64,000 nucleotides of DNA, taken from contig NZ_AQQU01000004.1 in the NCBI RefSeq assembly GCF_002210105.1, positions 62,001 through 126,000 on the forward strand. Direction: 5' to 3'. Position 1 is the first letter of the stretch; the number at the start of each line of letters is the position of its first letter. A program made the position numbers and the translations under genes. Below the pieces are notes generated by a model. That model did no database searches, was not told where the DNA came from, and saw nothing but the letters and a program-made list of their open reading frames with translations. Below, in pieces: positions 48,190 through 64,000 of the stretch. The stretch is from Oceanicola sp. 22II-s10i (GTDB taxonomy: Bacteria; Pseudomonadota; Alphaproteobacteria; Rhodobacterales; Rhodobacteraceae).

Positions 48190-48265
48190 GGGTGATTAGC
48201 TCAGTTGGTAGAGCGCTTCGTTTACACCGAAGATGTCGGGAGTTCGAGTCTCTCATCACCCACCA
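48190..48265 (+). tRNA. tRNA-Val (anticodon TAC)
   Basis: Acceptor GGGTGAT with ATCACCC, D arm GCTC/GAGC, anticodon stem CTTCG/CGAAG with loop TTTACAC (anticodon TAC), T loop TTCGAGT, discriminator A and encoded CCA. An integrase gene follows at 48356, so the 3' half of this tRNA is the probable attachment site (attL) of the phage-like element. Confidence 0.96.
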
Positions 48266-48321
48266 TCCAAGCCTTTGATATTTCAGAAAACCCTTGCGTC
48301 ACAGGGGGTTCGACCGTTCTA

Positions 48322-48341
48322 TGGTTACACTTTTGGTTACA
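48322..48341 (+). repeat. Direct repeat upstream of integrase
   Basis: TGGTTACA occurs at 48322-48329 and 48334-48341, 12 bp apart, between the tRNA and the integrase start. It could be integrase arm-type sites or an operator; position is the only evidence. Confidence 0.4.
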
Positions 48342-48355
48342 AACTGAAGCGTGAC

Positions 48356-49936
48356 ATGGCTGGAAAGATTCGGCATCTGGTGAACCGTTCGGGCAGGTAT
48401 CATGCCCGGCTTGTGGTGCCCCGAGACCTGCAACAGATCGTGGGCAAGACCGAGCTGAGGAAGCCGTTGGGTGGTGACTATCGGCAGGCACTGCGCCTGC
48501 TACCCGGAGCGGTTGCAGAGCTTCAGCACGAGATTGCCCTAGCAGAGCGCAAAGTCGCCCCGGCCACACGGGCCGCGCAGGCGCGCTATCCTCTGGCGCC
48601 TGATCAGATCGCACACAGTCACTACATGCAGCGTCTGGCGTTCGATGACGCGCTCAGAAACGATCCTCGTTATGCCAGCGTCGGGATAGACGATGTGCTG
48701 GTGAAACGGCTGCGTGAGGCCGTCGCGGGCAGGGCGACGAACGAAGAGCTGGTGGAGCTGGTAGGCGGGCAGCTAGAGCGCTTCAGGGCGCTAGGGAACG
48801 TCGATGCCGCGCCCGGCACGGATGAGTGGCGCGTGATCGCCCGTGCGCTCTGCGTGGCCGAGCTGGAAGCGCTGGCGCGGGTTGCTGAGCGCGATGAAGG
48901 CGACTTCGCCGGTGCGGCTACTGCACCGGTGATCGTGGAGGCCACGCCGCCAGAGGAACCCAAGAAGCGCGTCAGCCTGTCCCGGCTATGGGAGGACTAC
49001 AAGGCCAACCGGATGGAAGCCGGCTTCATGCGCACTGAGGGGAGGCGTCAGAACACGGTGGTGGATGGGCTGCGGAAGTTCGTCAAACACGACGACGCCG
49101 CGCGCCTGACCAAGAAGGATATCACGCAGTGGCGTGACAACCTGATGAAGACCCTGTCCGCCAAAACGGTGAGCGATGTTTACCTGTCCACGATCCGGAC
49201 CTTGTTGGGATGGGCAGTCGAGAACGATCTTCTGACCGAGAATGTCGCGGCACATGTCCGGCAGAGGAAGCCACGGAAGCAGCATGCGCGGGAACAGGGT
49301 TACACCGATGAGGAAGCCCGGAAGGTCATTGCAGCTTCACGCGCCTACCAGCCGCACAGGGATGAGAAGGGCAGGGTGCGCGAGAAGCCGGGGATGACGG
49401 CGGCAAAGCGGTGGGCGCCGATCATCTGCGCTTTCACCGGGGCGCGGATCACCGAAATTACGCAGCTTCGAAAAGAGGACGTGCGCGAAGTGGATGGCCG
49501 ATGGGTGATCAGGATCACCCCGGAAGCGGGCTCAGTGAAGGCCGGGGGCTTTCGTGACGTGCCAATGCATCGGCAGATCGTGGAAGAGGGCTTTATCGAG
49601 TTCGTGAAGGTCGCGCCCGATGGGCCGTTGTTTCACGAAGAGAAGAACCCCGACCGGTTCGCCGCAGTTGCGACGCAGATTTCGAACCGACTGGCGACGT
49701 GGTTGCGCGTGAACGGGCTCTGTCCGGAAGGGTTGCAGCCTAGTCATGCGTGGCGGCACCGGTTCAAGACGCAGTGCCGTGAGCTGGGTGTCTCGGATCG
49801 CGTAGTGGATGCGATCCAAGGGCACACTGGTAAGACTGCCGGGGACAGTTATGGGGATGTGACGCTCAAGACGAAAGCGGATGCTGTCAAAAAGCTAAAG
49901 TTTTACGAATTTTCGATAAGAACACTTGAGCCTTAA
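48356..49936 (+). CDS. int: Tyrosine recombinase (phage integrase)
   Basis: A 526-residue integrase. The N-terminal part (KIRHLVNRSGRYHARLVVPR) is an arm/DUF6538-like start, followed by a SAM-like core-binding domain near residue 205-300. The catalytic domain has R364 (GARITEI), H464 and R467 (SHAWRHRF), H490 (IQGHTGKTAGD) and the nucleophile Y499 (DSYGDV). It catalyses integration at, and excision from, the adjacent tRNA-Val. ATG 48356 is the first in-frame ATG after the tRNA. It is convergent with the DUF2971 gene. Confidence 0.94.
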   Translation: MAGKIRHLVNRSGRYHARLVVPRDLQQIVGKTELRKPLGGDYRQALRLLPGAVAELQHEIALAERKVAPATRAAQARYPLAPDQIAHSHYMQRLAFDDALRNDPRYASVGIDDVLVKRLREAVAGRATNEELVELVGGQLERFRALGNVDAAPGTDEWRVIARALCVAELEALARVAERDEGDFAGAATAPVIVEATPPEEPKKRVSLSRLWEDYKANRMEAGFMRTEGRRQNTVVDGLRKFVKHDDAARLTKKDITQWRDNLMKTLSAKTVSDVYLSTIRTLLGWAVENDLLTENVAAHVRQRKPRKQHAREQGYTDEEARKVIAASRAYQPHRDEKGRVREKPGMTAAKRWAPIICAFTGARITEITQLRKEDVREVDGRWVIRITPEAGSVKAGGFRDVPMHRQIVEEGFIEFVKVAPDGPLFHEEKNPDRFAAVATQISNRLATWLRVNGLCPEGLQPSHAWRHRFKTQCRELGVSDRVVDAIQGHTGKTAGDSYGDVTLKTKADAVKKLKFYEFSIRTLEP

Positions 49937-49947
49937 TAGAGGGAACT

Positions 49948-50904
49948 TTACGTGCTGACGCGCAACGGTATGTCAGAGAGGATGACCTTGCTCGCGGCGT
50001 TCTCAACGCCGGCTGCTTCCAAAACGTCCGCAAATGCTTTGTAGCTCATGTATGGATATTCAGTGGGGCCAACAATAATGCGGTCTAGGAGCGACGGAAT
50101 GTCTGCCCCGAAGAGGCCGTGCTCTGGCTCATTTGCTAATCTGAGCTTGAATACAGTTTGTGGGGTCCCGTTTATTACTAGCGTTGCCTTCGTCATTTCG
50201 GGGCTAATTCCTTCTGAGGGCCGGTAGTAGAGGCGCCATTCCTTCTCTTCCTCAAATCCTGGGTGCTTCGTGGCAATGGCTAATCTGAACAGCATCCTGT
50301 GGATATATGTGACTACGGTTTCTCGACCAAGGCTGCTTAGATGGGCGGCGTTCATTTCTATTGCCTGAGTAATCTTGGCCAAGTATTGGGTCAGATCCTG
50401 TTCCGACAGATATAGGACAGGAAGGGAGTAGACCGCTAACAAGTCTGTTACCGCCACCATGGGGGTATTTTTAACTATGAGTGCCGTATCTCCATATGCA
50501 CGCCACATCGAAAGGCGACCGCTCTTGTCTTCTTTAGCGTCGTGGGCGGATACACAAGCGATATAGGTTTCTGAACGCCAATCGCTTTCCCAACCGGAAA
50601 GTAGTTCATTTGCCTCCCCAATAATACCTGGGAATATGCTTTCAACTGCGTTGCGGAAGTTTTCGCCTTCATTGCCTGAAAATACTGCTCCAATAAGTTC
50701 TAGGCCATACGAAATCTCGGAGAAGTCATTCATAACTGTCGCGTTTCGAAACCATAGCTCTTTGTTTCGTATTATCTGCATGGCGGTGTCCGCTGAGGTG
50801 TAATAAGCAAACCGCTTTCCATTCTCGGCGACGCTTTGCACCTCTTCCATCAGGCCGGGATTGAAAATTTGGTAGAACTTCACTGTCGCATCATCTAGGT
50901 CCAT
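49948..50904 (-). CDS. DUF2971 family protein (accessory phage gene)
   Basis: A 318-residue protein of the DUF2971 type: FAYYTSADTAMQIIRNKELW, FRNATVMNDFSEISYGLELI, YIACVSAHDAKEDKSGRLSM with MWRAYGD, and the late EKEWRLYYRP. Function is unknown; the family often occurs as an accessory gene in mobile elements, and a defence role has been suggested only by context. Its bases are strikingly AT-richer than the surroundings (48% G+C over 50041-50100), so it was probably acquired separately. ATG 50904 follows AAGGAAAG. It is divergent from the portal gene. Confidence 0.75.
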   Translation of the reverse strand: MDLDDATVKFYQIFNPGLMEEVQSVAENGKRFAYYTSADTAMQIIRNKELWFRNATVMNDFSEISYGLELIGAVFSGNEGENFRNAVESIFPGIIGEANELLSGWESDWRSETYIACVSAHDAKEDKSGRLSMWRAYGDTALIVKNTPMVAVTDLLAVYSLPVLYLSEQDLTQYLAKITQAIEMNAAHLSSLGRETVVTYIHRMLFRLAIATKHPGFEEEKEWRLYYRPSEGISPEMTKATLVINGTPQTVFKLRLANEPEHGLFGADIPSLLDRIIVGPTEYPYMSYKAFADVLEAAGVENAASKVILSDIPLRVST

Positions 50905-63645: not shown

Positions 63646-63669
63646 CTTGTCGATTGCGTCTCTGACTTG

Positions 63670-63689
63670 ATTGTTGTAATTTTGCAACA
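63670..63689 (+). promoter_or_regulatory. 20-bp phage motif, copy C
   Basis: ATTGTTGTAATTTTGCAACA, 19/20 identical to copy A. It lies 25 bp after the previous stop and 175 bp before the next start. Confidence 0.6.
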
Positions 63690-63696
63690 GTAGGGG

Positions 63697-63751
63697 CGCC
63701 GCTCCGGGACAATTCTCGCATTCGAAATTGTAAGTCACCCCCGGAGCGGCG
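63697..63751 (+). other. Compound hairpin in the last leader region
   Basis: CGCCGCTCCGGG (63697-63708) pairs with CCCGGAGCGGCG (63740-63751); inside, ACAATT (63709-63714) pairs with AATTGT (63726-63731). TTTGT follows. Further on are the palindrome TAAGCGCTTA (63760-63769), an AT-rich stretch, and a small CCTTGC-GAAA-GCAAGG hairpin (63805-63820). It may be a terminator or a structured leader. Confidence 0.55.
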
Positions 63752-63864
63752 TTTGTAAGTAAGCGCTTAAATACAATAAAATCAAATACTTAGAAATAAC
63801 TTTGCCTTGCGAAAGCAAGGGCGATTATGGCATGTCTCATCAGAGAAAATGCGGAGCGCCACAA

Positions 63865-64000
63865 ATGAAAGACATCCCCCTCACACCTGACACATACATC
63901 CCGGACACGATCTATGACCGGCTGGTCGACACGCTGGCGCGTCTCATCGAAGCGCCGTTTGAGCCTGCCGGGACGGATGCGAAAACCGAGGTCATCGCCG
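63865..64000 (+). CDS. Start of an unidentified phage gene (3' end outside window)
   Basis: An ATG with GGAG 9 bases upstream opens a frame that runs to the window edge, giving 45 residues (MKDIPLTPDTYIPDTIYDRL, then VDTLARLIEAPFEP). I recognise no domain. It lies after a complex leader with motif C and hairpins, so it probably begins a new transcription unit such as the replication or control block. Confidence 0.55.
   Translation, partial: MKDIPLTPDTYIPDTIYDRLVDTLARLIEAPFEPAGTDAKTEVIA

What the first reader, a model, noticed from the sequence alone, without database searches (positions are those of the whole stretch)
48190..64000. Mini-prophage or satellite-like element with scrambled head/tail order and no visible tail tube
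The sequence shows an integrase at tRNA-Val(TAC) followed by portal, chaperone-like, protease-capsid, chaperone-like, HNH, connector, gp10, DUF3168, closure, TerS, TerL and tape measure. In known HK97-type phages terminases come first and a major tail gene precedes the tape measure. Capsid-forming phage-inducible islands also put TerS/TerL after the head genes and lack tails, but they do not carry a tape-measure protein. An element that makes its own head, tail chaperones and tape measure while borrowing tube and tip from a helper would set its own tail length. That is inference; a shuffled complete prophage is the alternative.
Basis: partly seen in the sequence, partly recalled or inferred. 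Interest (0 to 1): 0.8.

Follow-up and report, generated by a model that had tools for sequence, protein, structure and literature searches.

The report
Tail-ruler-carrying phage satellite family
This is a 17-kb mobile element that encodes its own virus head, neck, tail ruler and tail-assembly chaperones but no recognisable tail tube, tip or lysis genes, so it most likely borrows those from another phage; it belongs to a widespread family in alphaproteobacteria, and a related trick was shown in 2026 for cholera satellites.

Summary
A 35-bp repeat of the tRNA-Val(TAC) 3' end lies at window 48243 and again 17,280 bp on, 1.5 kb past the window; a same-genus genome has the site empty. The element carries integrase, portal, TAC_11 chaperone, protease-capsid, a fused chaperone, HNH, four neck/completion genes, TerS, TerL and tape measure protein (TMP). 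No tail tube, tip, lysis or replication gene was recognised. It is unlikely to be a shuffled or decayed phage: of 115 distinct related loci (its own copy included), 99 could be tested and 97 have TMP; 90 long ones have TAC_11 in 90 and the fused chaperone in 89; TMP is under purifying selection like the capsid; one relative is a 17.5-kb circular plasmid. Best reading: a capsid-forming satellite that builds a chimeric tail from its own ruler and chaperones plus a helper's tube and tip. The one tube family searched in this genome (PF06199) occurs only in its GTA cluster and in a prophage whose TMP is 42% identical. Prior art limits novelty: cholera PLEs do this, and putative tmp genes were reported in some cf-PICIs (PMC12987554). 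Virion assembly is inferred, not shown.

The parts
48190..48265 (+). tRNA-Val(TAC), integration target
   Evidence: ARAGORN
48243..48277 (+). attL: 35-bp repeat; the other copy (attR) is at extended coordinate 65523-65557, i.e. L004:1523-1557, 1.5 kb past the window
   Evidence: exact repeat search; site empty in same-genus G007
48233..49936 (+). tyrosine integrase (longest ORF; my ORF caller prefers a start at 48356)
   Evidence: PF00589 28.0 bits (cut-off 27.1), phrog_1 E 5.4e-35
49948..50904 (-). cargo gene, DUF2971; no PADLOC match
   Evidence: PF11185 E 1.8e-5
51046..52224 (+). portal
   Evidence: PF04860 E 1.2e-87
52221..52538 (+). tail assembly chaperone of the GTA-gp10 / TAC_11 family, in the head block and not beside a tube gene
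   Evidence: PF11836 E 2.7e-24 (Pfam and PHROG 8985 label the family tail tube, see Tried and rejected); AlphaFold: hairpin + 5 helices, pLDDT 92, not a tube barrel; Foldseek BFVD: 2 hits at E <= 0.001, neither named by function; named tail assembly chaperones from E 1.9e-3, and 3 of the 50 shown are named tail tube protein (E 0.07 or worse)
52502..54070 (+). prohead protease-major capsid fusion (my ORF caller prefers a start at 52535)
   Evidence: PF04586 + PF05065
54077..54697 (+). fused tail assembly chaperone: TAC_11-like N-terminal domain + weakly TAC_6-like C-terminal part
   Evidence: phrog_7493 (unknown function) E 8.8e-22; PF09550 only E 0.048, and PF01713 E 0.013, both under cut-off; hhalign to TAC_11 E 2e-5, prob 77; AlphaFold same hairpin + 5 helices then more helices; top Foldseek hit a phage tail assembly protein E 2.6e-4
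54697..55038 (+). HNH endonuclease (packaging role inferred from position)
   Evidence: PF01844 E 2.4e-8
55050..55643 (-). unknown gene in the variable HNH-gp6 slot
   Evidence: no Pfam match over cut-off, no PHROG, no PADLOC match
55767..56111 (+). gp6-like head-tail connector
   Evidence: PF05135 E 1.4e-11
56095..56520 (+). HK97 gp10-like neck/tail completion protein
   Evidence: PF04883 E 5.4e-11
56517..56936 (+). tail completion protein gp17-like (DUF3168)
   Evidence: PF11367 E 6.1e-16
56924..57253 (+). head completion/closure protein
   Evidence: PF05521 E 2.4e-18
57277..57801 (-). unknown cargo gene
   Evidence: no Pfam, PHROG or PADLOC match
57822..58214 (+). terminase small subunit
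   Evidence: PF05119 E 3.8e-19
58211..59836 (+). terminase large subunit
   Evidence: PF03354 + PF20441
59846..62224 (+). tape measure protein, 792 aa
   Evidence: phrog_10574 E 1.3e-123 (its residues 723-788 also match the end of phrog_1768, labelled endolysin, E 1.7e-19); homologue in 97 of 99 testable related loci; median pairwise dN/dS 0.174
62444..62926 (+). accessory gene (N-terminus looks ribbon-helix-helix-like by eye, untested)
   Evidence: homologue in 43 of 90 full related loci; no PHROG match
62986..63645 (+). accessory gene
   Evidence: homologue in 20 of 90 full related loci; no PHROG match
63802..64000 (+). small accessory gene (called as 60 aa at 63865-64047, crossing the window end). 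The element continues to attR at 65523-65557 with small unknown ORFs: L004:187-477, L004:564-890 and, on the minus strand, L004:959-1309 (the last was not scanned for families)
   Evidence: no Pfam match; a family of small genes (median 66 aa) sits in this place in 32 of 41 att-bounded elements

Best explanation
The element is an integrative phage satellite of the capsid-forming type. Shown from sequence: it is att-bounded at tRNA-Val, encodes a head, TerS-TerL-HNH packaging set, neck/completion proteins, a tape measure and two tail-assembly chaperones, and lacks recognisable tube, tip, lysis and replication genes. Inferred: after a helper phage is induced or infects, the element excises, is replicated with helper or host functions, and packages itself into its own heads; its chaperones load its own TMP, recruit the helper's tube subunits (perhaps through the TAC_6-like part of the fused chaperone) and polymerise them on the helper's tip complex, giving a chimeric tail that is capped by the element's completion protein and joined to its own neck. 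Carrying ruler and chaperones keeps neck, completion protein, chaperone and ruler a matched set, so the element needs only tube and tip from whatever compatible phage is present.
For: att repeat and empty site; 115 distinct related loci (the window's own copy L119 included), TMP in 97 of the 99 with at least 2.5 kb after TerL; in the 90 with portal, TerL and TMP, TAC_11 90/90 and fused chaperone 89/90; 41 att-bounded members, median 17,999 bp, range 11.1-20.2 kb; TMP, TAC_11, fused chaperone and capsid under purifying selection, median pairwise dN/dS 0.174, 0.166, 0.257, 0.156 (pairs are not independent); tube and tip proteins of the resident prophage, of the GTA cluster and of four other prophages (some assigned by position only) find 0 of 160 loci while the GTA portal finds 129; no BLAST cluster of non-core plus-strand genes of 110 aa or more is in more than 22 of 41 members; of the PF06199 tube family this genome has two copies, in the GTA cluster and a C36 prophage, each directly followed by TAC_11, and the prophage TMP is 42% identical to the element's over residues 1-697; the top 20 TerL rows of the phage collection are at most 31.2% identical and no record matches the fused chaperone at E 0.01; a 17.5-kb circular Paracoccus plasmid carries the same block including TMP; precedent for the mechanism in PLEs (PMC12987554).
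Against: No experiment: induction, particles, helper dependence and chimeric tails are all inferred. No Stl/AlpA regulator or replication gene was recognised, unlike classical PICIs (recalled features), so how it is triggered and replicated is open. The helper is not identified: the C-terminal satellite TMP profile does not hit the C36 TMP but hits four longer phage TMPs, so C36 may not be the helper. A divergent tube protein cannot be wholly excluded: the bulk PHROG scans list only the first 25 of 64 and of 50 matched families, single-sequence searches are weak (the GTA TAC_11 control found only 7 of 160 loci), and one small minus-strand ORF near attR was not scanned. Pfam and PHROG label the TAC_11 family as tail tube. 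The TAC_6-like part rests on weak scores (E 0.048; hhalign prob 15).
Confidence: 0.76

Rival explanations
1. It is a complete, autonomous small phage with shuffled gene order whose tail tube and tip genes are too divergent to recognise.
For: It encodes TMP, chaperones and completion proteins; some relatives also carry a lambda gpM-like gene after TMP (phrog_14 in 5 of the 284 non-core genes of 41 att-bounded elements; 20 profile hits over the 160 loci, partial hits and near-copies included), a gpI-like gene (16 hits; PF06805 22.0 bits, under cut-off) or a phrog_9574 'tail protein' (2 of 284). TAC_11 is labelled tail tube by Pfam and PHROG.
Against: Only about 3.3 kb follow TMP before attR, holding small, poorly conserved genes; no conserved unassigned gene fits a tube; both chaperone-like proteins are predicted helical, not barrel; no lysis or replication gene was recognised among the scanned window genes; five known or presumed tubes hit 0 of 160 loci.
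Confidence: 0.08
2. It is a satellite, but TMP and chaperones act mainly as decoys that sabotage helper tail assembly (anti-phage), not as parts of its own virion.
For: TMPs are a known point of attack in tail interference (PLE11 Rta targets ICP1 TMP, PMC12987554); cargo in some relatives is defence-like.
Against: Near-universal co-conservation with the neck and completion genes and capsid-like selection fit a structural part; in PLEs the satellite TMP is in the virion and its loss cuts transduction 96-99.9%.
Confidence: 0.1
3. The tail donor is the host's gene transfer agent, not a phage.
For: Host range overlaps taxa with GTA-like clusters (recalled); this genome has a GTA-like cluster on C12 with PF06199 tube, TAC_11, TAC_6 and a TMP-position gene.
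Against: That gene is 219 aa and matches the family TMP profile weakly (18 bits against 579 for the C36 TMP).
Confidence: 0.04
4. It is a decaying prophage remnant.
For: Lacks tail and lysis genes. Two related loci (L110, L116) do look decayed (truncated TerL).
Against: Core frames of the window element are open; same architecture across many genera; purifying selection; exact att repeat; plasmid form of a relative.
Confidence: 0.02

Closest known systems
Capsid-forming PICIs (cf-PICIs, Alqurainy et al. 2023; original paper not held, definition seen as a passage in PMC10690885)
   Same: Portal, protease, capsid, connectors, HNH, TerS, TerL; integrated, small genome; no recognisable tube or tip genes
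   Different: By that passage cf-PICIs depend on the helper for the production of tails; here TMP and two chaperones are near-universal. No AlpA/Stl or primase recognised. Some cf-PICIs are reported to carry putative tmp genes (PMC12987554 Ext. Data Fig. 10b legend; accessions not visible to me), and the present family might include those.
Vibrio cholerae PLEs (PLE11, PLE1, PLE4)
   Same: Satellite encodes own TMP and TAC (some also a hub protein) and borrows most of the rest of the tail; for PLE11 chimeric tails shown by western blot, mass spectrometry and TEM (section 8 read)
   Different: PLEs use the phage's capsid proteins and a contractile tail; this family encodes its own head and its TMP relatives lie in siphophage-type modules. 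No sequence kinship was tested.
Capsid-encoding Streptomyces satellite MulchRoom (PMC10690885)
   Same: Own small capsid and packaging genes
   Different: Tail length consistent with the helper's and no tail-component genes reported (passages; the sentence prints the helper's name MulchMansion, apparently a slip)
RcGTA-like gene cluster
   Same: Homologous portal, capsid, connector, TAC_11; TAC_6-like motif
   Different: GTA has tube and tip genes and a 219-aa TMP-position gene; the window element has int/att and its own bounded genome
Satellite-plasmid cf-PISP of Vibrio (PMC13230959, passages)
   Same: Precedent for a capsid-forming satellite kept as a plasmid, as in the Paracoccus marcusii relative
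   Different: Tape measure not mentioned in the paper's main text (0 occurrences); groups with gammaproteobacterial cf-PICIs

Membership tests
cf-PICI | Own capsid, protease, portal, head-tail connectors | tested here: met
cf-PICI | Own TerS, TerL and HNH | tested here: met
   TerS 86 of 90, HNH 90 of 90 full related loci
cf-PICI | Integrase and att-bounded small genome | tested here: met
   17,280 bp between att copies
cf-PICI | Tail wholly from the helper (no tail genes) | tested here: not met
   TMP and two chaperones present, though no tube or tip was recognised
cf-PICI | PICI-type regulator (Stl/AlpA) and replication module (recalled feature) | tested here: not met
   none recognised among the window genes scanned; of three TMP-less related loci tested, two carry DUF927 or DUF3987 genes and one no match
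cf-PICI | Mobilised by a helper phage's tails | not testable with these tools
   needs induction experiments
PLE | Satellite-encoded TMP and TAC used in a chimeric tail | tested here: inconclusive
   genes present; use in a virion not testable here
PLE | Uses the phage's capsid proteins | tested here: not met
   encodes its own capsid
Autonomous siphophage | Tail tube, tip and lysis genes within att sites | tested here: not met
   none recognised, (limits given in the Against line)
Gene transfer agent | Host locus with tube and tip genes and no integrase/att (recalled) | tested here: not met
   int and att present, tube/tip not recognised; a GTA-like cluster lies on C12

The most novel reading that the evidence does not exclude
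A widespread alphaproteobacterial satellite lineage encodes every virion part except tube and tip: head, neck, completion protein, ruler, and both a short (TAC_11) and a long fused (TAC_11 + TAC_6-like) chaperone as separate genes, a gene-encoded counterpart of lambda's frameshift pair G and G-T (lambda recalled). It builds self-ruled chimeric siphophage tails, may trade rulers with full phages, in some rhizobial members adds a cell-wall peptidase inside the ruler, and can live as an integrated island or a plasmid. (Odds lowered from 0.5 after the repeat tree did not reject a single phage clade, which leaves ruler exchange unproven.)
Probability: 0.44. Interest if true: 0.75.

Novelty: new variant of a known kind. 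Interest (0 to 1): 0.57.

Why it matters
Well-characterised satellites were described as hijacking phage tails; PLEs were presented in 2026 as the first shown to mix their own parts into the tail (PMC12987554). This family suggests that carrying the ruler is the standing strategy of a large satellite lineage outside Vibrio, in which head, neck, chaperones and ruler travel together and only tube and tip are borrowed. It gives a natural test of which tail interfaces must be matched and which tolerate foreign partners, and the related loci come from many named isolates (for example Ruegeria, Paracoccus, Roseovarius).

Tried and rejected
Hidden tube idea: Pfam calls PF11836 'Phage tail tube protein, GTA-gp10' and PHROG 8985 'tail tube protein', so I tested whether the element's TAC_11 is a tube. 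Rejected: helical AlphaFold model; in both the GTA cluster and the C36 prophage it is a separate gene directly after a PF06199 tube; the C36 PF06199 protein matches the solved RcGTA tail tube Rcc01691 (E 2.2e-22), whereas the TAC_11 profile matches no RcGTA chain at E 1 (its best hit, E 2.9e-5, is a chain named lysozyme, not followed up). The PDB Foldseek search of TAC_11 gave nothing at E 0.001.

Ruler exchange: the first TMP tree seemed to force at least 2-3 switches between satellite and phage, but three rows labelled phage (L283-L285) had not been checked for a tube and several branches were very long. Repeated without the unchecked rows, the two unclear rows, seven very long-branched rows (the tube-bearing phage L222 among them) and the copy of the window (5 tube-bearing phages, 86 satellites), the best tree needs 4 changes but well-supported branches force only 1, and one phage clade is not rejected (p-AU 0.106). 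Exchange is therefore suggested, not shown.

A sewage record of 18.2 kb (MW091529) with a related capsid looked like a possible free satellite; it has a major tail protein and GTA-like gene order after it, so it is not one. GTA as tail donor considered and ranked low. The idea that the TMP mainly shortens the tail was weakened: 792 aa against 756 aa in the C36 prophage; longer TMPs (1104-1381 aa) in four other prophages share the C-terminal stretch. The curlin-like protein search did not give a simple flank-to-flank test because that block is inverted between the two genomes; the empty site rests on the tRNA side. Literature: ten searches; none listed a description of this family; papers were seen as listings except PMC12987554 (outline, section 8 whole, passages), PMC10690885, PMC11389934 and PMC13230959 (passages). 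Two papers asked for by DOIs that I recalled (meant: SatelliteFinder and the original cf-PICI paper) are not held.

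
Full report
What is there. The window is contig C34:62001-126000 of a genome of 5.1 Mb. The element starts in tRNA-Val(TAC) at 48190-48265. Reading on into the next stretch of the contig (L004) shows an exact 35-bp copy of the tRNA 3' end and following bases at extended coordinate 65523, so the element is 17,280 bp from repeat to repeat. Beyond it lie genes that I read by eye as curlin-like and as a sugar ABC transporter. 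In the same genus, 22 of 22 genomes (own included) match the left flank; in G007, the one I fetched, the tRNA end is followed 96 bp later by the first gene of the curlin-like block with no phage gene between. That is an empty site, although the block itself is inverted between the two genomes.

Gene content. The order is int, DUF2971 (-), portal, TAC_11, protease-capsid, fused chaperone, HNH, unknown (-), gp6, gp10, gp17/DUF3168, head closure, unknown (-), TerS, TerL, TMP, then small unknown genes. One ORF near attR (L004:959-1309, minus) was not scanned. AlphaFold gives TAC_11 as a beta hairpin plus five helices (mean pLDDT 92.2), and the 206-aa protein after the capsid as the same layout plus further helices (88.7); the alignments held 71 of 86 and 70 of 93 listed homologues plus the window. 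The N-terminal half of the second matches TAC_11 by profile comparison (E 2e-5, probability 77); its C-terminus has only a weak TAC_6 match (probability 15). Foldseek against viral models lists tail assembly proteins and chaperones for both, for TAC_11 beside three entries named tail tube protein at E 0.07 or worse.

Is a tube hidden? In this genome the PF06199 tube family occurs twice, in the GTA-like cluster (C12) and in a C36 prophage, each time directly followed by a PF11836 gene; the element has PF11836 without a tube (a fourth PF11836 match, on C1, is under the cut-off). Other tube families were not searched in the whole genome. The C36 tube matches the solved RcGTA tube Rcc01691. Tube and tip proteins of C36, of the GTA-like cluster and of four other prophages (L279-L282; the L280 and L282 tubes and the tip genes are assigned by position and length, only the L279 tube by Pfam) hit 0 of 160 related loci, against 129 for the GTA portal; the weaker control, GTA TAC_11, hit only 7, so single-sequence searches miss distant homologues. 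Among 284 non-core genes in 41 att-bounded relatives, no BLAST cluster of plus-strand genes of at least 110 aa is in more than 22. PHROG scans of all 284 show no tube among the listed families, but only the first 25 of 64 and of 50 families are listed; they do show tail-labelled genes in a few members: phrog_14 (gpM-like) in 5, phrog_9574 in 2, phrog_32 (gpI-like) in 2.

The family. A TerL alignment drew 80 genome loci and 80 viral contigs (both lists capped at 80, of 81 and of 159 relatives). Genes were called with my own simple caller and assigned with iterated profiles. Removing near-copies (TerL 97% or more) leaves 137 loci; 115 have at least two of gp10, gp17 and closure (group A, which includes the window's own copy L119), 22 do not (group B; four of these, L064, L141, L152 and L156, are cut contigs that do show TMP). 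In group A, 99 have at least 2.5 kb after TerL; TMP follows in 97; the two misses (L110, L116) have a truncated TerL match. Fourteen were too short and two had no TerL call. In the 90 with portal, TerL and TMP (chosen for having these): TAC_11 90, capsid 90, fused chaperone 89, HNH 90, gp6, gp10, gp17 and closure 90 each, TerS 86, int 80. A few divergent members differ in order (L184, L187) or have int at the other end (for example L046, L083). By their titles the hosts are Rhodobacterales and Hyphomicrobiales for the most part. In the 100 nearest genomes (own included), 14 had any TMP match and only a few a long one, so the family is patchy. Forty-one of the 115 show a direct repeat of at least 17 bp, many of them tRNA ends, giving 11.1-20.2 kb, median 18.0 kb; the short one (L117) lacks several genes and the long one (L113) has inserts in TerL and after TMP. 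Many other loci begin too close to int to be tested. TMP length has a median of 796 aa over 97 (508-1222).

Selection. Median pairwise dN/dS (70-98% identity, pairs with finite dS; pairs overlap and are not independent): TMP 0.174 (43 pairs), TAC_11 0.166 (176), fused chaperone 0.257 (44), capsid 0.156 (313), TerL 0.116 (744 of 791), gp17 0.163 (238 of 243). The ruler is kept about as strictly as the capsid.

Where the ruler comes from. The C36 prophage has a conventional order (TerL, portal, capsid, neck, PF06199 tube, TAC_11, TMP, then tip genes by position and a PG-binding protein); its TMP aligns over residues 1-697 of the element's at 42%. A scan of viral contigs with that TMP (best 80 of 505 kept) gave mostly partial matches; after the prophage itself the three longest top-ranked matches (L201-L203) have the satellite gene order, and L206, L207, L215 and L216 have a tube gene before TMP. 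On the repeat tree of the N-terminal domain (5 tube-bearing phages, 86 satellites) the labels need four changes, but supported branches force only one and a single phage clade is not rejected (p-AU 0.106; the first tree, looked stronger but included unchecked and very long rows). Satellite TMPs are most conserved at about residues 81-240 and 641-800. The C-terminal profile does not hit C36 but hits the C-termini of four long TMPs (1104-1381 aa) in other prophages, so the tip-facing end (orientation recalled from lambda) may match another helper class. Eleven of 115 TMP sequences examined (satellite and phage; the eight from named hosts are rhizobial) contain a stretch like the VanY-type peptidase domain of a Sinorhizobium member.

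Related forms. Paracoccus marcusii has a 17,494-bp circular plasmid with the same block, TMP included (842 aa across the record start), with a replication initiation gene and no int match. Group B loci of Azospirillum, Roseomonas and Methylosinus have portal, capsid, HNH, TerS and TerL but no neck set or TMP; of three tested, L100 has a DUF927 gene, L109 a DUF3987 gene, and the 751-aa gene of L104 no Pfam match. They look closer to the published cf-PICI plan. In the phage collection 1655 records match TerL, all under 60% identity and the top 20 at most 31.2%, and none matches the fused chaperone at E 0.01.

What is known. The cf-PICI definition seen in PMC10690885 (passage) fits except that tails are said to come from the helper. 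Mathur et al. 2026 (PMC12987554; [quoted passage not shown] 10b show a sampling of cf-PICIs with putative tmp genes (legend seen, accessions not). So the principle is published; what is added here is the scale (97 of 99), the paired chaperones, the tight coupling to neck genes and the plasmid form. I found no paper on this family in the held library (ten searches).

Verdict. A satellite of a known kind with a ruler module, most likely making chimeric tails. Shown: boundaries, gene content, family conservation, absence of recognisable tube/tip/lysis within the stated limits. Inferred: helper dependence, chimeric tail, tail length control, route of replication, ruler exchange with phages.

Noticed in passing
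G000:C36:35001-95000 (L029, L006, L030); 34.8-kb IMG/VR contig 2788500368_000003 (L200): Conventional-order siphophage prophage with a GTA-like tube and a TMP 42% identical to the element's; a candidate tail donor.
   Followed up: partly
L286 (G000:C12:383001-401000): GTA-like cluster with tube, TAC_11, TAC_6, a 219-aa gene at the TMP position and tip genes by position.
   Followed up: partly
L288 (NZ_CP157016.1, Paracoccus marcusii plasmid): 17.5-kb circular plasmid form of the element family with a replication initiation gene and no integrase match.
   Followed up: yes
L290 (CP099479.1) and hits H88, H90: Other 16-23 kb alphaproteobacterial plasmids with TerL relatives (L290 also has portal, protease and capsid genes), possibly satellite-plasmids of the TMP-less group.
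   Followed up: partly
L289:13644-16361 and 11 of 115 TMP sequences: VanY-type peptidase stretch inside the satellite TMP; in L289 the record carries a predicted vanY resistance label (30.7% identity) that is very likely a false call.
   Followed up: partly
L113 and L190, TerL and after TMP: TerL interrupted by an insert with a minus-strand ORF (336 aa) and a second large minus-strand ORF after TMP; looks like an inserted intron or mobile gene.
   Followed up: no
L078 (CP059262.1): Record titled Exiguobacterium profundum MAG carries a member of this otherwise alphaproteobacterial family; probably a mislabelled or mixed assembly.
   Followed up: no
L004:1768-9288: Run of curlin-like repeat proteins (by eye) downstream of attR, in inverted order relative to same-genus G007.
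   Followed up: no
cargo genes of relatives (L067:18025-19200, L049:7159-7974, L050:6484-7395, L053:16907-18616): Defence-like cargo by PADLOC/Pfam: AbiU/AIPR, type IV restriction enzyme, LeoA-like (weak), DNA methyltransferase.
   Followed up: partly
non-core genes of att-bounded relatives: Five of 284 match phrog_201, which carries a leukocidin label, weakly (best E 5.6e-6); probably a misleading family label.
   Followed up: no
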